Shown here: piece by piece, positions 4,862-14,498 of the stretch | How positions within the stretch are numbered: the first letter of the stretch is position 1 | How the letters are laid out: every line of letters starts with the position of its first letter | IMG/VR virus record: IMGVR_UViG_3300021976_000066 | Location: 1-26,338 of that record | Length of the DNA stretch: 26,338 nt | Direction: 5' to 3' (one strand) | DNA from: a virus | Translations under genes and position numbers: made by a program | The notes under the pieces: generated by a model | Seen by the model: the letters and a program-made list of their open reading frames with translations, nothing else | Told to the model about the DNA's origin: nothing | The model's database searches: none

Positions 4862-4885
4862 TTCAACGAAAAGGAAATGAGCACA

Positions 4886-6100
4886 ATGGAACTCAAAGAC
4901 CAGCTCACTGCGCTGCAGACCGAGCTCAAATCTCATTTCGACAAGGCTGCCGAGGAACAGAAGGCCAACGGCACCATGCGCGAAGAAACCAAAAACGCAA
5001 TCACCAAGCTTCAGACCCAGGTCGATGCCATCGATACGAAGCTGGCCGACCGGCCCAACTCCGGCGCGCCCACAGTCAACGCATTCAAGGCAGCATTTGA
5101 CGAGTGCGACGCTGTCCAGAGGCTGGTGAAGGATCGCAGCGGCAAAGCGGTCATTCACTTCAAGGGCGACGCCGTGCGCGAGATGCAGCGCAAGACGGTG
5201 CTCACGGAGAACGTGACGGGCTCGATCGGTAGCGATACCGGTGTTGCGGCAGGATATGCGACGACCGGCGTTCTGCAGATCGACCGCATTCCCGGAATCA
5301 CGACAGAAGCGCGGCAGGTACTCAAGATTCGCAATGTCTTGACTGCCCGTCCGACCACGCTCCCCGTCGTCGATTTCGTGAAGGTGTCGACGCCTCTGAG
5401 CATCGCCTCGCCAGTCGCAGAAGGTTCGCTGAAGCCCGAGCAGTCGCTCAACTTCAGTTCCTCGTCCGAGCGGGTTAAGACCATCGCCTCATGGGTGCCG
5501 GCATCGCGTCAGATTCTCGACGACATGACCGAACTCATGGGCTTCATCCGTCAGAGCCTGCCCTATTACACGGACCTGGCGGAAGAGCAGCAGCTTCTGT
5601 CCGGTGACGGTACCGGGGAGAATCTGCACGGCTTTATCTCGCAGGCCTCGGCTTTCAGCACCGCTCTCCTTCCTTCCGCCGCAAGGGGCTGGACGAAGAT
5701 AGACGTCATTGGCTGCGCGGTCGAACAAATCACGATTGCCAAGGAGACCGATCCGACCTTCGTTATCCTCAACCCGAAGGACTGGTGGGATATCCGCCTG
5801 ACCAAGGATGGCTTCGGTCGCTACATTCTGGGCGACCCGCAGTCGACAGTGCAGCCGAACATCTTCGGCCTCGATGTGGTCTACACCACCTCGATTGCAC
5901 CGGGCACCTTCCTTGTGGGCAGCGGCAATCCGATCGCGCAGGAAATCCGCGACAAGATGGAGATGGTTGTCGAAATCTCCACCGAGCACCTGGATTATTT
6001 CGCGCGCAACTTGATTGCCATCCGCGGTGAGAAGCGCCTCGCCAATGTGGTCAAGCGCCCGGGCAGTTACGTGTCCGGCTCGTTCACGACCAGCCCGTAG
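4886..6100 (+). CDS. Major capsid protein, HK97 fold with N-terminal delta domain
   Basis: This 404-residue protein builds the icosahedral shell. Residues 1 to about 57 are a charged coiled coil, the delta or scaffold domain, followed by a linker and the HK97-fold core. Alignment by eye to HK97 gp5 matches IPGI, the E-loop SLKPE, VKTIASWVPASRQILDD, LLSGDGTGENL and the C-terminal FARNLIAIRGEKRL. HK97's cross-linking lysine, asparagine and catalytic glutamate correspond to K183, N375 and E382, all conserved. The cleavage site is probably just before the SIGSD segment. AAAAGGA at 4869-4875 suits the ATG at 4886 (10 bases) and not the ATG at 4877 (1 base). A terminator hairpin follows 20 bases after the stop. 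Confidence 0.95.
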   Translation: MELKDQLTALQTELKSHFDKAAEEQKANGTMREETKNAITKLQTQVDAIDTKLADRPNSGAPTVNAFKAAFDECDAVQRLVKDRSGKAVIHFKGDAVREMQRKTVLTENVTGSIGSDTGVAAGYATTGVLQIDRIPGITTEARQVLKIRNVLTARPTTLPVVDFVKVSTPLSIASPVAEGSLKPEQSLNFSSSSERVKTIASWVPASRQILDDMTELMGFIRQSLPYYTDLAEEQQLLSGDGTGENLHGFISQASAFSTALLPSAARGWTKIDVIGCAVEQITIAKETDPTFVILNPKDWWDIRLTKDGFGRYILGDPQSTVQPNIFGLDVVYTTSIAPGTFLVGSGNPIAQEIRDKMEMVVEISTEHLDYFARNLIAIRGEKRLANVVKRPGSYVSGSFTTSP

Positions 6101-6120: not shown

Positions 6121-6156
6121 CTGGCGCCTCAAGACATCGGGGCGCCAGTCTTTTCC
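6121..6156 (+). terminator. Rho-independent terminator after the capsid gene
   Basis: A perfect 8-base stem (CTGGCGCC at 6121-6128 and GGCGCCAG at 6141-6148) with a 12-base loop is followed by TCTTTTCC. It begins 20 bases after the capsid stop. The T-tract is interrupted, so termination may be partial. That would allow heavy capsid expression with reduced read-through into the accessory island. Confidence 0.7.
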
Positions 6157-6161
6157 GAGAC

Positions 6162-6497
6162 ATGAAACTCATCGCGAATCGCCAGCTGACTGGCACCTAT
6201 GGCACCGTTACGGCCGGCCAAACCTTCGAAGTTGAAGATGCCACGGCTGTGCAACTCATCACGCAAGGCGTAGCGCACAAGGCCGACCCGCCACGAGTGG
6301 AATATCAAACGAAAGTCATTAAGCCGGAAGCTCCCGAGGTAAGCCCGCGGGAACCCTTTCGTGACAGCCTTATGCCTTACGAGGAACCGGCGGCAGTGGC
6401 TCCCGAAAGCAATCGAATCGTTCCGCAGTCAGACATACCGGAACGCAGAGATGTTGATCGTCGCAGACGGCGAGGACGTCCGCGATCTGGTTCCTGA
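6162..6497 (+). CDS. Small hypothetical protein after the capsid gene
   Basis: This 111-residue reading frame starts at an ATG 6 bases beyond the terminator. Residues 1-45 look like a folded domain (MKLIANRQLTGTYG, AGQTFEVEDATAVQLITQGVAHK), a pattern seen in small phage proteins with a beta strand, an acidic turn and an LI..G helix. I cannot name its function. The last 46 residues overlap the next gene out of frame by 137 bases and are rich in Arg, so they may be poorly constrained. There is no clear ribosome binding site. It could be a small head-associated protein, judging only from its position. Confidence 0.55.
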   Translation: MKLIANRQLTGTYGTVTAGQTFEVEDATAVQLITQGVAHKADPPRVEYQTKVIKPEAPEVSPREPFRDSLMPYEEPAAVAPESNRIVPQSDIPERRDVDRRRRRGRPRSGS

Positions 6498-6951
6498 CGA
6501 CATTCGCCTGATCCACTTGGCGGAAAAACCGTTCTCGATCGGAGAAAAGCGCAACTTCGGGGTCGCGCAATCGCGTGGCGATGTCATCTGCCATTGGGAT
6601 GATGACGACTGGAGCGCGCCAGAACGACTTCAGCGGCAGATAGATGGCCTGCTCTCGAGCGGCCTGCAGGTTGCCGGCTTCCATTCGATGAAGTTTACCG
6701 ATGGAGCGAAGTGGTGGAGCTACAAGGGCATCACGACGTATTCGCTCGGGACATCGCTTTGCTACTGGCGGTCGTGGTGGGAGAAGCATCACTTCCCTGC
6801 AAAGAACATTGGCGAGGATAACGAGTTCGTCGCTACATCTGTCGCGGCGAAGCAACTGTACTCGGAAGACGCGGGAGACCTGATGCACGCGACGATTCAC
6901 TCAGGCAACACAAGTCCACGTTTCTTCGGGACTAACTGGAAAGAGCTATGA
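6361..6951 (+). CDS. Glycosyltransferase family 2 (GT-A fold)
   Basis: This 196-residue enzyme should transfer a sugar from a nucleotide-sugar donor. The GT2 pattern is clear: a first strand ALCLTRNR at 3-10, LPKAIESFRSQTY at 14-26, ADG at 35-37, then EKRNFGVAQSRGDVI at 62-76 and the metal-binding acidic cluster DDDDW at 80-84. The start is a GTG with GGGA about 10 bases upstream; a frame stop at 6340 rules out a start further back. It overlaps the preceding small gene by 137 bases and the next gene by ATGA. The protein is shorter than many GT2 enzymes and has no membrane segment, so it should be cytoplasmic. The acceptor is unknown. Confidence 0.88.
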   Translation: MTALCLTRNRRQWLPKAIESFRSQTYRNAEMLIVADGEDVRDLVPDDIRLIHLAEKPFSIGEKRNFGVAQSRGDVICHWDDDDWSAPERLQRQIDGLLSSGLQVAGFHSMKFTDGAKWWSYKGITTYSLGTSLCYWRSWWEKHHFPAKNIGEDNEFVATSVAAKQLYSEDAGDLMHATIHSGNTSPRFFGTNWKEL

Positions 6952-7187
6952 CGGCACTGCTTATTGCGATCCTGATTCTGATCGTCATCTCGCTCGCGAT
7001 TAACGCGATGATCCTGGCCGCGATCGGAGACGTGCTCGCATGGTCGCGGCAGCGCTCCGGTCCCCGACTAGACAATAGCGACTTGCGTCAGATTCTCGCT
7101 ATGGCGACGGAAGCTGCAAGGGAAGCTACAAAGGAAAGCGAATCGCGGATTCCGTGGCCAGCGCGCATTCCGCGTTACGACGCATGA
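6948..7187 (+). CDS. Small membrane-anchored protein
   Basis: This 79-residue protein has one strong N-terminal transmembrane helix (about residues 3-30, rich in Ile, Leu and Ala) and a soluble, charged helical tail with EAAREATKESES near 55-66. I do not recognise a family. The ATG overlaps the stop of the upstream glycosyltransferase (ATGA), with GGAAAG just before it, and its own stop overlaps the next start in the same way, so it is translated as part of the island. By context it might tether an island enzyme to the membrane; this is speculation. Confidence 0.7.
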   Translation: MTALLIAILILIVISLAINAMILAAIGDVLAWSRQRSGPRLDNSDLRQILAMATEAAREATKESESRIPWPARIPRYDA

Positions 7188-7897
7188 GTAAGGCATGGTT
7201 CGCAATACCTTCAGCCCGGCCATCACGCGAGGCAAACGAATCTCTCGTCAGATGGCGTTGCAAGGGCTATGGCGTCTCCATCTGGCGCGATTCAGCGGAA
7301 GGCGCACCGTTCTGCAACCTCCTGACGGTCGGGCCTTATCCCGGATACGCCAAGGCCGTGAACGCACTGGCGGCCGAGATTCTTCGAACGGATCCGGAAT
7401 GCGAATGGATCGTTTGCGGCGGGGACGATACGCTCCCCGATGAGCGAAGCGCAGATGATATTGCCGCAGAGTGTTCAGCCCATTTCAAGGGCACGCTGGG
7501 GGTCATGCAGCCCACAGGCGACCGCTGGGCAGATGGTTCTATCGATCGCATCGCAGGCAGCCCGTGGATGGGCAGGGACTGGTGCCTGAGGGCAAACGGC
7601 GGGGCTGGTCCGCTGTGGCCTGAATTTACTCACATGTACGTGGATCAAGCCCTGCAAGAGACGGCCATTCGGTGCGGAGTCTTCTGGCAGCGGCGCGACG
7701 TGACGCACCTTCACCGGCACTACCTCCGAGATGCGGAACGAATCGATGCTGGCGTGAGGTATGCGGACCCGCCGGAGCACCTGAAGAAATGGAACAGCCC
7801 ACAGCACTGGAGAGAGATGGCGGCCATTTACGAAAGGCTGAGAGCGCAGAACTTTGCGCCGTGCATGCCGGTTGGGGCGGCTGAGAGAAGCGTATGA
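7184..7897 (+). CDS. Probable glycosyltransferase-like protein
   Basis: This 237-residue protein looks like a GT-A nucleotide-sugar transferase. It opens with AWFAIPSARP, then YPGYAKAVNALAAEIL at 52-67, and EWIVCGGDDTLPD at 74-86, whose GDD can serve as the metal site. Later segments include GVMQPTGDRW and DRIAGSPWMGRDWC. Aromatic and acidic residues are abundant, as in sugar-binding enzymes. I recall similar proteins from phage genomes, but the specific family is not certain. The ATG at 7184 overlaps the upstream stop by ATGA; an earlier in-frame start at 7154 would overlap the previous gene by 34 bases. It has no signal peptide or membrane segment. Confidence 0.68.
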   Translation: MSKAWFAIPSARPSREANESLVRWRCKGYGVSIWRDSAEGAPFCNLLTVGPYPGYAKAVNALAAEILRTDPECEWIVCGGDDTLPDERSADDIAAECSAHFKGTLGVMQPTGDRWADGSIDRIAGSPWMGRDWCLRANGGAGPLWPEFTHMYVDQALQETAIRCGVFWQRRDVTHLHRHYLRDAERIDAGVRYADPPEHLKKWNSPQHWREMAAIYERLRAQNFAPCMPVGAAERSV

Positions 7898-8139
7898 ACG
7901 AGTCCGAGAGGAAGATATGGAACGAGGCCATTGAGGCAGCCGTTCAGGAAGCGCGGCTCGCCGACGTGGATGTTCTCTATGGAAGCGCGGGAAACAAGCT
8001 GCGGAGCGAAATCATCAGCCGCATCTGGGGGCTAAGCAAATGGGCTGACGGTGGAGTCATAGAAAATCGTGAGCCGTTCATCGTCGGCGAAACGGTGCGC
8101 AATTGCCACCACGCTCCCTGGGACAAAGAGAAATCTTGA
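7894..8139 (+). CDS. Small hypothetical protein (81 aa)
   Basis: This 81-residue, mostly helical protein (ERKIWNEAIEAAVQEAR near 5-21, IISRIWGLSKWA near 40-51) has no recognised family. It is held in the island by an ATGA overlap at its start and a TGATG overlap at its end. Small proteins with an amphipathic N-terminal helix are common in phage genomes. I infer only that it is co-translated with the flanking enzymes. Confidence 0.65.
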   Translation: MNESERKIWNEAIEAAVQEARLADVDVLYGSAGNKLRSEIISRIWGLSKWADGGVIENREPFIVGETVRNCHHAPWDKEKS

Positions 8140-8831
8140 TGGATATGCCCGAAGAAGAAAGGAGCCGCGGAGAATCGCCAGAGCTGACCGGGGCGCCTCA
8201 GGGTGCCCTTTGTCATATGCCTGTGAACTACTCTCAAGGCGAAGAGCAGAAGCACATCTTGGAGCATGCTGGCGATTCGGGGCGGTTTCTCGACATCGGT
8301 GCCTGGCATGCGAAGAACCTTTCGAACACGCGCGCGCTGTACGAGCGCGGGTGGTCTGGCGTTCTGGTCGAGCCGTCACCGGAGCCGTTCTTGGGGCTTC
8401 TGAAGGAGTACGGCGAAGACGAGCGGATCAGTTTGGTATGTGCCTGCGTGGGTGGCGTGGAGACTCTCGCGCAATTCCACGCTTCTGCCGATGCGCTGAG
8501 CACGTCCTCTCAGGAGAACTTCGAGAAGTGGCGGGCAGTGGGTGGATTCTACGGTCGCTTTTACTCCCCACGTGTCGAGCTAGACTACCTGATGGAGCGG
8601 TTCGGGGAGTTCGACTTCGTCAGCATTGATGCCGAAGGGTCGAGCGTTCAGATCTTCGGCGATCTACTGTGCCTGCCGCGCTTCATTGATGGGATAGGGC
8701 TTCCGAAGTGCATATGTGTCGAGCACGACGGGCGTAACGCAGAGACGCTGCTGATGGCGACCGCTGCCGGGTACCGCGAGGTTTACTTCAGCGGAGAGAA
8801 TCAGGTTTTCGCGCGCGGTATCAATGGCTAG
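8139..8831 (+). CDS. FkbM-type SAM-dependent methyltransferase
   Basis: This 230-residue enzyme should O-methylate a sugar or glycan using S-adenosylmethionine. Motif I is RFLDIGAWHAKN near 49-60, motif II is GVLVEPSPEPF near 71-81, and a third conserved stretch, FDFVSIDAEGSS, is seen near 165-176; this order matches FkbM proteins. The start at 8139 is a TGATG overlap with the previous stop; an ATG at 8217, just before VNYSQGEEQ, is closer to where the fold begins and is an alternative. Methylation of sugars added by the neighbouring transferases is the natural reading of the context. Its last 11 bases overlap the convergent zinc-ribbon gene. Confidence 0.85.
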   Translation: MDMPEEERSRGESPELTGAPQGALCHMPVNYSQGEEQKHILEHAGDSGRFLDIGAWHAKNLSNTRALYERGWSGVLVEPSPEPFLGLLKEYGEDERISLVCACVGGVETLAQFHASADALSTSSQENFEKWRAVGGFYGRFYSPRVELDYLMERFGEFDFVSIDAEGSSVQIFGDLLCLPRFIDGIGLPKCICVEHDGRNAETLLMATAAGYREVYFSGENQVFARGING

Positions 8832-8955
8832 GGCAAGCCTTGCGGCGATCCCGAGCCGATAGCACCTTGCCGCACCTTGGGCATGGCAACATCTTTTTGG
8901 CTGGACCGCCGTAGGTTTTGCGCATCAGGGATAGTTCGCGGGCTGGATTCTTCAT
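8821..8955 (-). CDS. 44-residue zinc-ribbon microprotein
   Basis: This small minus-strand gene encodes a basic 44-residue protein with Lys and Arg throughout and a C-terminal metal site, CPRC at 25-28 and CPSH at 41-44, giving the CxxC...CxxH spacing of a zinc ribbon or knuckle. Its ATG overlaps the TGA of the upstream minus-strand gene (ATGA at 8955-8952), which supports translational coupling and makes a chance frame unlikely. It ends inside the last 11 bases of the convergent methyltransferase gene. Basic charge plus a zinc knuckle suggests nucleic-acid or protein binding. The function is unknown and I do not recognise a named family. Confidence 0.68.
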   Translation of the reverse strand: MKNPARELSLMRKTYGGPAKKMLPCPRCGKVLSARDRRKACPSH

Positions 8956-9221
8956 GCGTTCACCGCGAGGAAGCGCTCAACCATCTCGCGGATCGCTGGA
9001 TCGCTGGTATAGGGGCTATCGCTGCCCTCTGGCTTGAGAACGCTAAGGAAGTTGGCGATGGCGCGTGCAGTCCATGACGCGTACGGAGAGTAGCGAACCA
9101 CATCCCAGGGGCCAAGCTGATCGCCGGCAGCCGTCACTAATACGGGGATGCCATAGCTGGACTGGGAGTGATCGGTCGAAAGTGTGTACTGGGTGCTGTG
9201 TGCATCGAATGTGACTTGCAT
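8952..9221 (-). CDS. Hypothetical protein in antisense cassette (89 aa)
   Basis: This 89-residue protein is not recognised. It starts with a beta-rich half (MQVTFDAHSTQYTLS) and ends with a short helix (AIREMVERFLAV). An excellent ribosome binding site, AGGAGA at 9233-9228, lies 6 bases before the ATG at 9221; a longer frame reaching to 9341 lacks such a signal and would run through the promoter and palindrome described below. The next minus-strand gene overlaps by ATGA. The pair lies against the direction of every island gene around it, which suggests it is an independently expressed insert. Confidence 0.72.
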   Translation of the reverse strand: MQVTFDAHSTQYTLSTDHSQSSYGIPVLVTAAGDQLGPWDVVRYSPYASWTARAIANFLSVLKPEGSDSPYTSDPAIREMVERFLAVNA

Positions 9222-9227
9222 TTGGCA

Positions 9228-9272
9228 TCTCCTGAACTGATAAGAGATTAGCACAACATCGCTGTTGTGCAA
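9228..9272 (-). promoter_or_regulatory. Promoter with operator-like palindrome for the antisense cassette
   Basis: Reading the minus strand, TTGCAC (9272-9267) and TAATCT (9250-9245) are 16 bases apart, and TG-C before the latter makes an extended -10 element. The spacer is a perfect inverted repeat, GCACAACA and TGTTGTGC around a 4-base centre (9251-9270). A start site near 9238 would give a 17-base leader holding AGGAGA and then the ATG at 9221. Each hexamer matches consensus at only three of six bases, so the palindrome, the TGn and the geometry carry the call. A repressor bound there would block RNA polymerase. Confidence 0.5.
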
Positions 9273-9300
9273 GAGGAAAAGTGAAGGAATTGGAGAAACC

Positions 9301-9990
9301 TTGGTAACGTTTCGCAGCCGCTGCGTGGTCAACGTGGCCACCGGCCGCTTCGTGATCGGTCAGAATCGACTCGATTCCCTTCTGACCGTCCCGCTGGTGA
9401 AGTGGACTGACCATCTCCCCCCCACTTCACCGGCCCATAACGATGTGCCCTATGCATTCAAAGCGTGGGCGCTATACGAAGCCAGCAAGCAATACACGAC
9501 GCTGCTCTGGGCGGATGCCTGTATCGTTCCGCGCGACCTGACGCCGCTCTTTGAGCGCATCGAGCGCGAGGGCTATTGGATGTCAAGGAATGGCTGGACG
9601 AATGCCGAATGGACGGCGGAGTCGGCTTATGAGGATCTCGGAATCACGCGAGAGGAAAATGCACGGATTCCGCATGTGGTGGCGACCGCGTTCGGTATCA
9701 GTCTCAAGCACGCCAAAGGTGCCGGGTTCCTGGGCGGGTATCTCAGGCTGGCGCAAGCGAATGCCTTCCGGGGCCCGTGGTGGAACAGCAACCACCCTGA
9801 GCATGGGAATAACCCGGGCGCGGTGCCATGCGGAGACGAAACAGTCAGAGGCCACCGCCATGATCAGAGTTGCGCCAGTGTCATCGCATGGAAGCTCGGC
9901 TTCGAACTGACGGAACCGCCGAATTGGTTTAGCTACAAAGGTGCCGAGACGGTGGATACAGTGCTCATCGCTGACGGCGATTACGCATGA
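9301..9990 (+). CDS. Putative glycosyltransferase-like protein
   Basis: This 229-residue protein is probably a nucleotide-sugar transferase of the GT-A type. DVPYAFKAWALYEASK at 48-63 precedes LLWADACIVPRDL at 68-80, where the ADA acts as a degenerate metal motif, and GHRHDQSCAS near 190 resembles the late HDQ segment of such enzymes. The family is not certain. The start is a TTG at 9301 with GGAG 5 bases upstream; a TTG at 9265 is in frame but lies inside the palindrome and lacks a good ribosome binding site. It resumes the forward island after the antisense cassette and is joined to the next gene by ATGA. Confidence 0.6.
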   Translation: MVTFRSRCVVNVATGRFVIGQNRLDSLLTVPLVKWTDHLPPTSPAHNDVPYAFKAWALYEASKQYTTLLWADACIVPRDLTPLFERIEREGYWMSRNGWTNAEWTAESAYEDLGITREENARIPHVVATAFGISLKHAKGAGFLGGYLRLAQANAFRGPWWNSNHPEHGNNPGAVPCGDETVRGHRHDQSCASVIAWKLGFELTEPPNWFSYKGAETVDTVLIADGDYA

Positions 9991-10874
9991 AGCTCGTTGG
10001 CATGATGCCGTGTCGCAACGAAGACTGGGTACTCGGCACTTCGGCCCGTGTGGCTCTGGAGTGGTGCGATGCGCTGATGATCTTCAACCATGCCAGCACA
10101 GACCGGACGCAGGAGATCATCCGCGAACTGACCGACGAGTTCCCGGACCGCGTCTTCCATGGCAGAGATAAGGACCAGGAATGGCATGAGATGGACCAGC
10201 GGCAATTGCTGCTGGAAGCTTCGCGCGAGATAGGTGCGACGCATCTGGCCATCATCGATGCAGATGAGATTCTGACGGCGAACGTCTGGCAGCAGGTGCG
10301 CAAAGCCGCAGAGACGATGCGGCCGAATCAGCTTATGCAGTTGCCCGGCTACAACCTGCGCGGCAGTCTGGATCGCTATCACCTCACCGGCATCTGGGGG
10401 GAACGCTGGTTCTCTACAGTCTTCATGGATGACCCCAGGCTGAACTGGAAGGGCGACCGGTTCCATCATCGCGAGCCAATGGGCATGACACTGCATCCCT
10501 ACCGGCCGATTCAGCAAGGGCAAGGCGGCATCCTGCACCTCTGGGGCGTCAGCGAACGCAGGCTGAAGGCCAAGCACGCGCTTTACAAGATGACGGAGAC
10601 GCTGCGCTGGCCTAGCAAGTCGAGAGTTGAAATAGACAGGCTCTACGGCCTGGCATTCGATCCGCGATTGAATCTGCAGTTCGATCAGGACTGGCGGTAC
10701 GCGGCAGTGCCGGATGGCTGGTGGTCGCATACGGAATATCTGAAACTCGACTCTCTTCCGTGGCAGGAATGGGAGTGCGGGCAACTTTACCGAGAGCATG
10801 GCGCGGAGCGGTTTCAAGGACTGAATCTTTTCGGAGTCTGTGGGGAGGCTGTGCATGAGCATCTGGCTCGATAA
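9987..10874 (+). CDS. Glycosyltransferase family 2-like protein
   Basis: This 295-residue enzyme shows the GT2/GT92-like layout: KLVGMMPCRNEDWVLG at 2-17, IFNHASTDRTQEII at 32-45 and the metal-binding IDADE at 90-94. Further along are HHREPMG and an aromatic-rich C-terminal half. It should transfer a sugar in the cytoplasm; no membrane segment is seen. The ATG overlaps the stop of the upstream gene (ATGA), and the end overlaps the connector gene by 20 bases, so the island runs directly into the head-tail module with no terminator between them. Confidence 0.85.
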   Translation: MKLVGMMPCRNEDWVLGTSARVALEWCDALMIFNHASTDRTQEIIRELTDEFPDRVFHGRDKDQEWHEMDQRQLLLEASREIGATHLAIIDADEILTANVWQQVRKAAETMRPNQLMQLPGYNLRGSLDRYHLTGIWGERWFSTVFMDDPRLNWKGDRFHHREPMGMTLHPYRPIQQGQGGILHLWGVSERRLKAKHALYKMTETLRWPSKSRVEIDRLYGLAFDPRLNLQFDQDWRYAAVPDGWWSHTEYLKLDSLPWQEWECGQLYREHGAERFQGLNLFGVCGEAVHEHLAR

Positions 10875-11541
10875 TTACGGCTTCACCCAATACGGCCTCT
10901 ATGGAGCGCTCGACCGATTCGGAAGCCTTTCGCTCACCGACTCGTCCCCGGCACAAAGCTGGACCGAGCCGCTGGATGTGGATCTCGTAAAGGACTACTT
11001 GAAGGTGCCATTCCGTTCGCCGGCGGATTCCTTCGAAGACATGCAGATCGGCATGTACATCTCCGCGGCGCGCGAGCAGGCGGAGATACTTCAGGGCAGG
11101 GACCTCGTTCCGAAAAGCTGGGACCTAACTTTTGACTACTGGCCGTCGTTTCGCATCCGGCTCCGCGATCCGCTGAAGAGCGTCGATCTGGTTACGACAA
11201 AGGATTTCACCGGAATCGTTACTACGCTGAATAACGGTACTGACTTCATTGTTGATACGACGAAGCATCCTGGCATCATCACGCCGCCCTATAACATGAC
11301 GTGGCCGGCCTTCTCCCTGTGGCCGACGTCCTCGATTCTGATTCGCTTCACGTCGGGCTATTCGCTCGCTGACCCGTTCTGGAATGGCTCTGGAGCGCGG
11401 ATCAAGAACGGCATGCTGCTACTCATCTCGGCCTGGTACAACAACCATCTGCCATTCGAGAAGGGCGTCAGCTGCACGAACGAGTATCCGTATGCAGTTA
11501 CATCGTGCCTGAGCTACGGAGCCATGGAGCGCGCGCGGTGA
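10855..11541 (+). CDS. Head-tail connector (HK97 gp6 / phiE125 gp8-like)
   Basis: This 228-residue protein should form the adaptor ring under the portal. The typical core is DVDLVKDYLKVPF near 43-55, followed by YISAAREQAEILQGRDLVPKSW near 68-89 (the helix that inserts among subunits) and beta strands with RIRLRDPLKSV. A C-terminal helix, IKNGMLLLISAWY, matches the family. GGGGAGG lies 7 bases before the ATG at 10855; the in-frame GTG at 10840 is less likely. It overlaps the last island gene by 20 bases. Confidence 0.82.
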   Translation: MSIWLDNYGFTQYGLYGALDRFGSLSLTDSSPAQSWTEPLDVDLVKDYLKVPFRSPADSFEDMQIGMYISAAREQAEILQGRDLVPKSWDLTFDYWPSFRIRLRDPLKSVDLVTTKDFTGIVTTLNNGTDFIVDTTKHPGIITPPYNMTWPAFSLWPTSSILIRFTSGYSLADPFWNGSGARIKNGMLLLISAWYNNHLPFEKGVSCTNEYPYAVTSCLSYGAMERAR

Positions 11542-13270: not shown

Positions 13271-13711
13271 ATGACGCAGAAGAAAGTGCCTAATGCTGTG
13301 ACCGGTGGGGTAGATGTGGAAGTTGGAGGGCAGAAGTACACGCTTCTGCTCTCCAACCGCATCATCATGGAGATCGAAGACGAAACCGGCCTCGATCTCT
13401 ACGACCGCGACAACCTCCTTCAACCCAAAACCAGATTCATCGCGACGGTGTTCCACGCATTGCTGAAGCGCGCTGGCGCCGATCTCACCTTCGATGATGT
13501 CGTTGAAATCTGTGCAGGTAAGAACCGCGCGCCAATTCAGCTGGCGATTATCACGGCCATGGGTAACGCGCTACCGACCGAGGAGCAGGTCAAACTCTTG
13601 GACCCTACAATGGCGGGAGCTCTGAAGAAGGCGCAGCAGACGGAACTCGAAGCATTTCAGAAGGGTTTCGGTGGCTCGACGGCTGGGCGCAAGCGCGCGA
13701 CCTCGGCCTGA
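13271..13711 (+). CDS. Tail assembly chaperone, gpG-like
   Basis: This 146-residue protein coats the tape measure during tail assembly. It reads as a small beta N-terminus (GGVDVEVGGQKYTLLLSNRIIMEIEDETG), then helices with FIATVFHALLKRAGADLTFDDVVEI, as in other tail chaperones. Position between tube and tape measure is diagnostic. A GGGTTTC heptamer at 13663-13669 in the correct phase would let some ribosomes slip by -1 and make a longer gpGT fusion with the downstream frame. The last 14 codons after the slip site appear only in the short form. Confidence 0.84.
   Translation: MTQKKVPNAVTGGVDVEVGGQKYTLLLSNRIIMEIEDETGLDLYDRDNLLQPKTRFIATVFHALLKRAGADLTFDDVVEICAGKNRAPIQLAIITAMGNALPTEEQVKLLDPTMAGALKKAQQTELEAFQKGFGGSTAGRKRATSA
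13663..13669 (+). promoter_or_regulatory. Programmed -1 frameshift slippery site
   Basis: GGGTTTC fits X XXY YYZ in the zero frame (G GGT TTC, codons at 13664 and 13667). After slipping, Phe and Gly tRNAs can re-pair with GGG and TTT. The -1 frame is open from 13567 to 13971 and reads as a sensible gpT-like protein. This is the expected recoding event for lambda-like G/T chaperones. Confidence 0.8.
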
Positions 13712-13971
13712 CAACCGAGGAATGGCTCGAGATCACCCCGCGTATGGTTGCGGCGCTGCGCATCCGCCGCCACCATCGGTTGCAGCACCTGGAAATGCTG
13801 GCGGGAATCATCGCGTCGACCTCTGCGAACTTCAGCTTCTGCCGTCCGGAAAAAGCTATGTCGCCGGCAGACTTCATGCTTCACAAGCTCCCGCCAGAAC
13901 CCGAGAAGCCAGTCAGCTACCTAGACATCCGTGCGGCATTCGGCTCGCGGATCAAGCAGCCCATTCAGTAG
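13669..13971 (+). CDS. gpT-like extension of the tail chaperone (read by -1 frameshift)
   Basis: This -1 frame continues the chaperone as about 100 residues. After the slip it reads RWLDGWAQARDLGLTTEEW, then a helical basic stretch (MVAALRIRRHHRLQHLEMLAG) and ends in YLDIRAAFGSRIKQPIQ. The LGLTTEEW-LEITP pattern is typical of the second half of such chaperone pairs. It has no convincing start of its own: the first ATG is at 13744, after the conserved part. I therefore read it as part of a fusion running from 13271. It ends 6 bases before the convergent repressor gene. Confidence 0.8.
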   Translation, partial: RWLDGWAQARDLGLTTEEWLEITPRMVAALRIRRHHRLQHLEMLAGIIASTSANFSFCRPEKAMSPADFMLHKLPPEPEKPVSYLDIRAAFGSRIKQPIQ

Positions 13972-13977
13972 TGGCGA

Positions 13978-14463
13978 CTAGCGACATTCCTTTGCCGCCC
14001 GACGTAGAGCGGACAAGGCTCTCAGACCAGCTTCTTTGCGCGCGGGATGTGGAGAGTCCAGCGCGTCCATCACGATCTTGAAAGACTCTACGGCCTGACG
14101 GGACCGTGGGTTATGTGAGTGAACCAGAAGGACTCCCGTGGAGCTTTCCGACGAAGGAAGCGCCTTTCTCAATTGAGCGTCTGCGCGCTGCATGGCATCG
14201 CGCTCATGCAGCGATATGAACGTCTCGCGAAGTAAAAGCAGGGCCCGGCTTTTATCGGGCAAGGCTTCCGACTGCTGATAGGCGACGGCAGCAAGTTCCA
14301 AGAGAGCTAGTTTTGCCGGGGGATGGCTCGTTTCATACCTAGCCACAGTCGTTACGGTCTTGCCCAATAAGGCGGCGAACCCTTCTTGCGTAATTCCGAT
14401 AGTTTCCCGTAGCGCGATCAATGCCGCGCTGGCAACGTGACGCTCCCCACCATTCGTTCTCAT
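13978..14463 (-). CDS. XRE-family (Cro/cI-like HTH) transcriptional regulator
   Basis: This 161-residue regulator has an N-terminal helix-turn-helix: ALIALRETIGITQEGFAALL near 15-34 then GKTVTTVARYETSHPP near 35-50, which is the canonical XRE layout. The rest is helical and Arg/Ala-rich and probably serves dimerisation; no peptidase-type cleavage motif is seen. It is antisense to the tail operon, sitting between the chaperone pair and the tape measure, an unusual place for a regulator. The ATG at 14463 is preferred because the predicted transcript starts there; an ATG at 14484 would add seven residues but lies inside the promoter. It may be a repressor of itself or of a neighbouring or distant phage promoter. 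Confidence 0.85.
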   Translation of the reverse strand: MRTNGGERHVASAALIALRETIGITQEGFAALLGKTVTTVARYETSHPPAKLALLELAAVAYQQSEALPDKSRALLLLRETFISLHERDAMQRADAQLRKALPSSESSTGVLLVHSHNPRSRQAVESFKIVMDALDSPHPARKEAGLRALSALRRAAKECR

Positions 14464-14498
14464 GTCATAACAATAGCATGACATAAATAAGTCATCAA
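14461..14498 (-). promoter_or_regulatory. Leaderless promoter with inverted-repeat operator for the XRE gene
   Basis: On the minus strand, TTGATG (14498-14493) and TATTGT (14475-14470) are 17 bases apart, with TGC before the latter forming an extended -10. The expected start site, 7 bases on, is the A of the ATG at 14463, so the mRNA would be leaderless. The inverted repeat ATGTCAT/ATGACAT (14462-14468 and 14478-14484, 9-base spacer) covers the -10 and the start codon, and a third half-site, AAGTCAT, is at 14489-14495. Binding by the encoded regulator would give autorepression. Confidence 0.55.

What the first reader, a model, noticed from the sequence alone, without database searches (positions are those of the whole stretch)
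6162..10874. Glycosyltransferase and methyltransferase island inserted inside the head module
Two clear GT2-type and two probable glycosyltransferases, an FkbM methyltransferase and small genes (one with a membrane helix) lie between the capsid and connector genes, where HK97-like phages normally have none or one small gene. Forward genes are chained by ATGA or TGATG overlaps, suggesting one translated unit. Phage-encoded glycosylation of virion proteins is known in some actinobacteriophages, and serotype conversion is known for temperate phages. Adjacency to the capsid gene makes the virion an attractive acceptor, but this is inference. The set could build and methyl-cap a small glycan.
Basis: partly seen in the sequence, partly recalled or inferred. 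Interest (0 to 1): 0.75.

Follow-up and report, generated by a model that had tools for sequence, protein, structure and literature searches.

The report
Frameshift fuses phage head protein to glycosyltransferase
Behind the capsid gene of soil phages related to prophages of Acidobacteria, ribosomes appear to be made to slip forward one base, joining a small head-region protein to a sugar-transferring enzyme, next to a changeable set of sugar-modifying genes; this suggests how a virus could tie a glycosylation enzyme to its own particle.

Summary
The island is real: glycosyltransferases and an FkbM methyltransferase lie between major capsid and connector genes. The first GT gene (GT1, 6361-6951) overlaps the small post-capsid gene (hp, 6162-6497) by 137 nt in the +1 frame, and it is apparently expressed by a programmed +1 ribosomal frameshift at TTT_C (6357-6360), giving a 262-aa hp-GT fusion.

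Evidence: of 64 distinct hp/GT1 junctions, 61 have TTT at the exact site and two more have TTT CGC slightly upstream. In 52 non-redundant junctions TTT is 52/52, against 15-44% at six other conserved Phe columns. In 21 of 64, GT1 has no start codon. Sister phages carry the same two domains fused in one frame; others have hp without GT. The hp frame is kept open through the overlap far beyond expectation. UUU_Y is a known +1-prone site in bacteria.

hp-GT1 is the conserved part: 72 of 85 capsid relatives have both genes. The rest is a 0-6.8 kb variable cassette of sugar enzymes. Virion glycosylation is the best reading but remains inference. Two of the four claimed GTs (7184-7897, 9304-9990) could not be confirmed. 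Three relatives lie in Acidobacteria genomes.

The parts
4877..6100 (+). Major capsid protein (HK97 fold family, PHROG 10)
   Evidence: PHROG E 2e-52
6121..6148 (+). Terminator-like hairpin (10 bp stem, T-rich tail) between MCP and hp; probably lowers expression of what follows
   Evidence: similar hairpins in 21 of 57 relatives versus 2% in shuffles
6162..6497 (+). hp: small post-capsid protein, 0-frame product of 111 aa; N-terminal domain (PHROG 2616, unknown function), linker, basic Ser/Arg-rich tail encoded in the overlap
6327..6365 (+). Conserved RNA element 5' of and across the shift site, GAAGCTCCCGAGGTRAGCSCGCGGSAACCSTTTCGTGAC, with an SD-like AGGTRA
   Evidence: strong synonymous codon bias upstream of the site; alignment
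6357..6360 (+). Proposed +1 slip site TTT_C (context CCC_TTT_CGT)
   Evidence: TTT in 61/64 distinct junctions, 52/52 non-redundant
6361..6951 (+). GT1: GT-A fold, family-2 glycosyltransferase domain in the +1 frame (HWDDDDW, GEDN motifs)
   Evidence: Pfam, PDB profile hits SpsA, CgT and heparosan synthase, fold
6162..6951 (+). Trans-frame fusion hp(1-66)-GT1, 262 aa
   Evidence: translation with TTTC read as one Phe step; natural in-frame fusions in relatives
6361..6497 (+). Dual-coded overlap: hp tail (0 frame) and GT1 start (+1 frame)
   Evidence: 0 frame open >=41 codons in 62/63 versus 43% expected
6948..7187 (+). 79-aa protein with an N-terminal hydrophobic helix; no counterpart found in relatives
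7184..7897 (+).
7894..8139 (+). 81-aa protein of unknown function
8139..8831 (+). FkbM-type methyltransferase; 82% DNA identity with L017 while neighbours show no such match (cassette exchange)
8821..8955 (-). 44-aa zinc-ribbon-like ORF, minus strand
   Evidence: weak Pfam match Zn_ribbon_3
8952..9221 (-). 89-aa ORF, minus strand, unknown
9304..9990 (+). 228-aa protein, GT claimed but not confirmed; relatives only in L007, L008, L009, L017
9987..10874 (+). GT4: family-2 glycosyltransferase (Glyco_tranf_2_4)
10840..11541 (+). Head-tail adaptor Ad1 (gp6-like)
   Evidence: PHROG 442

Best explanation
The core is an hp-GT1 gene pair read by a programmed +1 ribosomal frameshift. Most ribosomes translate hp (a small post-capsid protein) to its own stop. 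Some slip forward one base when tRNA-Phe sits on UUU with C next, re-pair on UUC, and continue into GT1. This makes a protein with the hp N-terminal domain, a short linker and a GT-A glycosyltransferase. By the logic of Gag-Pol, the hp domain would bring the transferase to the assembling head, where it puts a sugar on a virion protein, possibly the capsid or hp itself. The variable genes downstream (further GTs, methyltransferases, sugar aminotransferases, deacetylases) would extend and cap that sugar, so the glycan differs from phage to phage. Shown by comparison: conserved overlap, invariant slip site, missing start codons, in-frame fusion relatives, selection on the 0 frame, GT-A fold. Inferred: that hp binds the head, that the acceptor is a virion protein, the share of ribosomes that slip, and the order of the enzymes. 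My confidence is about 0.92 for the frameshift and 0.6 for virion glycosylation.
For: Overlap and frame conserved. TTT in 61/64 junctions, two more with TTT CGC 1 or 5 codons upstream; A-site CGT 56, TGT 4, CGC 2, CAT 1. In 52 non-redundant junctions the Phe codon is TTT 52/52, versus 14/50, 19/43, 9/33, 8/52, 20/52 and 10/51 at other conserved Phe columns. GT1 first codon is GTC, GTA, GCG, GCA or ATC in 21/64; 20 of these have no ATG/GTG/TTG between the upstream in-frame stop and the first codon, and L150 has no near-cognate start either. Natural in-frame hp-linker-GT fusions: L166, L167, L169/L170, L172, L176, L184/L186, L238; a full-length fold match, A0A6J5P5Q4, in another phage. 0-frame openness 62/63 versus 43% expected; T-ending codons before AA/AG/GA 1.6% in the overlap versus 15% downstream. 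Synonymous bias 5' of the site. [quoted passage not shown] influenza PA-X uses UCC_UUU_CGU (PMC3498833). The fold model of a natural fusion has pLDDT 93 and is GT-A, with a Che8 glycosyltransferase among its viral fold matches. Cassette content is sugar enzymes.
Against: No protein or translation data. In 43/64 junctions, the window included, GTG at the GT1 start could initiate translation. No consistent RNA structure was found around the site, and the SD-like sequence lies about 14 nt upstream, not at the 3-nt spacing of prfB. The amino-acid sequence of the 0-frame tail is not more conserved than a shadow frame elsewhere. hp has no known function (PHROG 2616) and no solved relative, so head binding is unproven. 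L033 lacks the TTT site.
Confidence: 0.7

Rival explanations
1. GT1 is a separate protein started at GTG 6361 inside hp; the overlap is only gene compaction.
For: GTG is present at that place in the window and in 43/64 junctions; GT-A domains often begin with exactly this first strand; an SD-like AGGTAA lies upstream.
Against: 21/64 junctions have no start codon there, including an isolate genome (L049, GCG). It does not explain invariant TTT one codon upstream, the in-frame fusions or the 5' synonymous constraint. SD-to-GTG distance is about 19 nt.
Confidence: 0.07
2. The GTs act on host surface sugars (serotype conversion, superinfection exclusion), not on the virion.
For: L012/L049 is a prophage; several gene sets could alter LPS or exopolysaccharide; GT fold matches include polysaccharide enzymes.
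Against: No GtrA-like flippase and no membrane-bound GT in the window or among the families listed for 108 relatives' island proteins. The genes sit inside the late head operon and GT1 is joined to a post-capsid protein.
Confidence: 0.2
3. The fused GT domain works as a sugar- or cell-binding decoration on the particle (like Ig-like frameshift extensions) rather than as an active enzyme.
For: Frameshift-made extensions of phage structural proteins are often Ig-like decorations (PMC5009743).
Against: DxD-type HWDDDDW, KRN and GED motifs are near invariant, as expected of an active enzyme.
Confidence: 0.12
4. The enzymes glycosylate phage DNA (hypermodification).
For: GT2-like enzymes modify DNA in some phages (general knowledge).
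Against: No modified-base synthesis genes among the genes scanned here; late head operon position; variable methyl/amino sugar enzymes fit protein glycans better. The rest of the genome is not in the 26-kb window.
Confidence: 0.04

Closest known systems
Virion glycosylation of mycobacteriophages Che8 and Rita (Freeman et al. 2023, as cited in PMC11256854)
   Same: Phage-encoded glycosyltransferases; a Che8 GT is among the fold matches of GT1; capsid proteins are the acceptors there
   Different: In that report on relative Maravista the GTs lie near the 3' genome end, not fused to a head-region protein and not made by a frameshift; acceptor is shown there, unknown here
Influenza A PA-X +1 frameshift, UCC_UUU_CGU (PMC3498833)
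   Same: Same P-site UUU, same +1 re-pairing on UUC, A-site CGU favoured, dual-coded overlap downstream
   Different: Eukaryotic ribosomes, different genes; here bacterial ribosomes and a conserved 5' element
Programmed frameshifts in phage structural genes (Listeria phage PSA +1 on a proline codon; T3, A118 and others; PMC5009743)
   Same: Frameshift makes a second, longer structural product from one late gene
   Different: Known extensions are capsid/tail extensions or Ig-like domains; none found in the papers searched adds an enzyme such as a GT
YopN-TyeA +1 shift at UUU_Ynn in Yersinia (PMC5009743)
   Same: Bacterial UUU_Y +1 slip that fuses two adjacent gene products
   Different: Not a phage gene
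Retroviral Gag-Pol frameshift
   Same: Works like it in logic: a minor share of a structural protein carries an enzyme into the assembling particle
   Different: Not related; particle incorporation is only inferred here
Serotype-conversion gtrABC clusters of temperate phages
   Same: Phage-borne glycosyltransferases
   Different: No flippase or membrane GT; different genome position

Membership tests
Programmed +1 ribosomal frameshift gene | Two ORFs overlapping in a fixed relative frame across relatives | tested here: met
   +1 frame, mostly 125-143 nt overlap in the set; 64 distinct junctions
Programmed +1 ribosomal frameshift gene | Invariant slippery site that allows re-pairing in the new frame | tested here: met
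   TTT_Y in 61/64 at the same place, two more nearby
Programmed +1 ribosomal frameshift gene | Downstream ORF lacks its own start, at least in some members | tested here: met
   21/64 without a start codon at the GT1 position
Programmed +1 ribosomal frameshift gene | Fused homologues in one frame | tested here: met
Programmed +1 ribosomal frameshift gene | Both frames under selection in the overlap | tested here: met
   0-frame openness; but no sequence conservation of the tail beyond control
Programmed +1 ribosomal frameshift gene | Stimulatory element (SD-like at 3 nt, pseudoknot or hairpin) | tested here: inconclusive
   Conserved 5' RNA stretch, no consistent structure
Programmed +1 ribosomal frameshift gene | Trans-frame protein detected | not testable with these tools
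   needs mass spectrometry or a reporter
GT-A family 2 glycosyltransferase (GT1) | GT-A fold and DxD motif | tested here: met
GT-A family 2 glycosyltransferase (GT4, 9987-10874) | Pfam GT2 match above the curated cut-off | tested here: met
   PF13704 32.6 bits, cut-off 27.5
Glycosyltransferase (7184-7897) | GT fold or family match | tested here: inconclusive
   no family match, low-confidence model
Glycosyltransferase (9304-9990) | GT fold or family match | tested here: inconclusive
   no match anywhere by sequence; fold not predicted
Phage virion glycosylation system | Glycan covalently bound to virion protein | not testable with these tools
   needs intact mass or glycopeptide analysis
Serotype conversion gtr cluster | GtrA flippase, GtrB/GtrC membrane transferases | tested here: not met
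   no such family in the window island, nor among the 25 commonest families in 108 relatives' island proteins
DNA glucosylation | Modified-base synthesis genes with DNA GT | not tested
   most of the genome lies outside the 26-kb window

The most novel reading that the evidence does not exclude
The frameshift product is a structural part of the particle: a minor share of a head decoration or minor head protein carries an active glycosyltransferase into or onto the virion, a Gag-Pol-like way of packaging a sugar enzyme in a DNA phage, with an exchangeable cassette that varies the glycan.
Probability: 0.4. Interest if true: 0.88.

Novelty: new variant of a known kind. Interest (0 to 1): 0.74.

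Why it matters
Virion glycosylation and frameshifting are each known in phages, but I found no case where a frameshift joins a head-region protein to a glycosyltransferase. It would give a simple, testable rule for how an enzyme is brought to its target during assembly and in what share. It would also be a broadly conserved bacterial use of UUU_Y +1 slippage, and it explains why a GT gene is a near-constant part of the head module of a large phage group of which no close relative was found among 50,697 deposited phage records. Gene callers will mis-annotate GT1 in these genomes, or miss its N-terminus.

Tried and rejected
(1) Sequencing error: rejected, the overlap recurs in more than 60 independent contigs and in an isolate genome. 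(2) Transcriptional slippage: rejected, only TTT(C), no long homopolymer. (3) -2 frameshift: unlikely, tRNA-Phe cannot re-pair on CGT/GTT, and TTT_Y is invariant. (4) RNA hairpin stimulator: folds of 5' and 3' flanks differ between sequences. (5) Conservation of the 0-frame tail as a protein: not above a control shadow frame; basic charge only slightly above expectation. (6) Structure prediction of the window's own fusion: the tool does not accept this four-letter step, so the unchanged in-frame fusion of L167 was folded instead. (7) One alignment row (L015 in A3) and one (L129 in A6) were wrong and were dropped in A4/A5/A8. (8) hp in named phages: no match even at E 0.1; Paracoccus phage Shpa gp7 looks alike by eye (small, Lys-rich tail) but was not tested statistically. 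(9) Literature: no paper found on frameshift-made GT fusions, but the library holds only open-licence papers and all 10 searches are used.
Full report
What is there. The window is a 26,338-bp IMG/VR virus fragment with an HK97-type siphovirus late region: TerS, TerL, portal, protease, MCP 4877-6100, then the island, then Ad1, Hc1, Ne1, tail terminator, major tail protein, tape measure and J-like fibre. Base composition does not mark the island as foreign. GT1, GT4 and FkbM are firm by Pfam. The proteins at 7184-7897 and 9304-9990 have no family match, and the first gave only a poor fold model. They may be GTs, but this is not shown.

The overlap. hp (6162-6497) and GT1 (6361-6951) overlap by 137 nt with GT1 in the +1 frame. 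In the relatives fetched from viral contigs the overlap is mostly 125-143 nt, always in the same frame. Nucleotides at the junction read CCC TTT CGT GAC in the window (TTT 6357-6359), and GT1 codon 1 is GTG 6361. In relatives this codon is often GTC, GTA, GCG, GCA or ATC.

The statistics. After removing identical junctions there are 64. P-site codon TTT: 61. L159 and L174 have TTT CGC one and five codons upstream; L033, a distant case, has none. A-site: CGT 56, TGT 4, CGC 2, CAT 1. Elsewhere in the same phages Phe is TTT in 891 of 4086 codons, and TTT CGT is 6 of 229 Phe-Arg pairs. 21 of 64 GT1 frames have no start codon at the expected place, and in all but L144 none occurs between the upstream stop and that place. 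In L150 not even a near-cognate start is available. With junctions less than 85% alike (52), the shift-site Phe is TTT 52/52, while six other conserved Phe columns have TTT in 15-44%. The sequences share ancestry, so no simple P value is given; the contrast with the control columns carries the argument.

Both frames matter. When GT1 codons are replaced at random by synonyms, the hp frame stays open for 41 or more codons in 43% of trials; observed 62 of 63, and no simulated set exceeded 38. Stops cluster at codons 45-47 (76% versus 18%). Codons ending in T before AA/AG/GA, which would make a stop in the hp frame, are 1.6% in the overlap and 15% downstream. The tail's sequence is not conserved beyond a control region, so what is kept is an open, basic tail of nearly fixed length. 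Upstream of the site the hp codons show strong synonymous bias (GCT 27/37 with 3.9 expected, GAG 32/32 with 17.6, CGG 37/37 with 11.8). This suggests a cis-acting 5' element; no common fold was found.

Natural experiments. In a sister group (L166, L167, L169/170, L172, L176, L184/186) and in L238, the same hp domain and GT lie in one open frame with a similar linker and no TTT site. The L167 fusion folds with pLDDT 93 into a small beta-rich domain plus GT-A. Best PDB matches are SpsA, AvpGT, WrtF and TarP. The best viral match is a 258-aa phage protein aligned along its whole length, and a Che8 GT is also found. Three MCP relatives (L228, L229, L231) have hp with a short basic tail followed directly by Ad1 and no GT. 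So hp exists alone, fused in frame, or fused by frameshift.

Core and cassette. Among 85 distinct MCP relatives with enough downstream sequence, 72 have hp and GT1. The gap from GT1 to Ad1 is 0.02-6.8 kb, median 2.2 kb; in L151, L155, L023 and L177 nothing lies between. The 108 cassette proteins scanned are mostly GT2-like, with methyltransferases, DegT aminotransferases, PIG-L, YdjC and GNAT. FkbM is 82% identical in DNA to L017 while flanking genes give no such match, a sign of gene exchange. A terminator-like hairpin separates MCP from hp in the window and in 21 of 57 relatives, so hp and GT1 are probably made in smaller amounts than the capsid.

Hosts. Genome searches place close relatives in Acidobacteriaceae bacterium KBS 96 (L049, the same prophage as L012), a Ca. 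Sulfopaludibacter MAG (L050) and an Acidobacteriia MAG (L051). The window's own host is not known directly. No close relative of GT1 or hp is found in 50,697 phage records.

How it likely works. UUU followed by a pyrimidine is especially prone to +1 slippage in bacteria (PMC5009743), and influenza PA-X uses UCC_UUU_CGU in the same way (PMC3498833). tRNA-Phe re-pairs on UUC and translation goes on into GT1. I infer that the hp domain ties the transferase to the head and that virion protein is the acceptor, because the enzymes are soluble, lie in the head operon, and no flippase or membrane GT is present. Capsid glycosylation is reported for Che8 and Rita (cited in PMC11256854). Host-surface or DNA targets are not excluded.

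What is not shown. No expression data exist here. The frameshift rate, head binding of hp, enzyme activity, sugar and acceptor are all open. In the window itself GTG at 6361 could also start GT1.

Noticed in passing
window 13271-13971: Tail assembly chaperone pair: first ORF 13271-13711, continuation in the -1 frame to 13971 (..DGWAQARDLGLTTEEWLEITPRMVAALRIRR..), with GGGTTTC as a candidate slip site; ordinary for siphoviruses.
   Followed up: partly
window 6121-6148: Strong terminator-like hairpin between MCP and hp; similar hairpins in 21 of 57 relatives.
   Followed up: yes
window 8821-9221: Two small minus-strand ORFs (one zinc-ribbon-like) interrupt the forward gene chain inside the island.
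   Followed up: partly
window 13978-14484: Minus-strand 168-aa ORF between tail chaperone and tape measure; looks like a helix-turn-helix regulator by eye.
   Followed up: no
L026, L166, L167, L170, L176: GT1 is followed in the same polypeptide by a second GT-like domain.
   Followed up: partly
island proteins of relatives (alignment A2): One TIR-domain protein and two HNH endonucleases occur in the same hotspot, so it also takes up non-sugar genes.
   Followed up: no
L028, L029, L030, L038: In other phage groups GT1-like genes lie elsewhere in the head module, just after or just before the Ad1 gene; in L029 and L038 other genes follow before Hc1.
   Followed up: no
L005, L208, L217, L222: Relatives whose MCP is followed by a protease-like gene instead of hp/GT1: a different module order or a duplication.
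   Followed up: no
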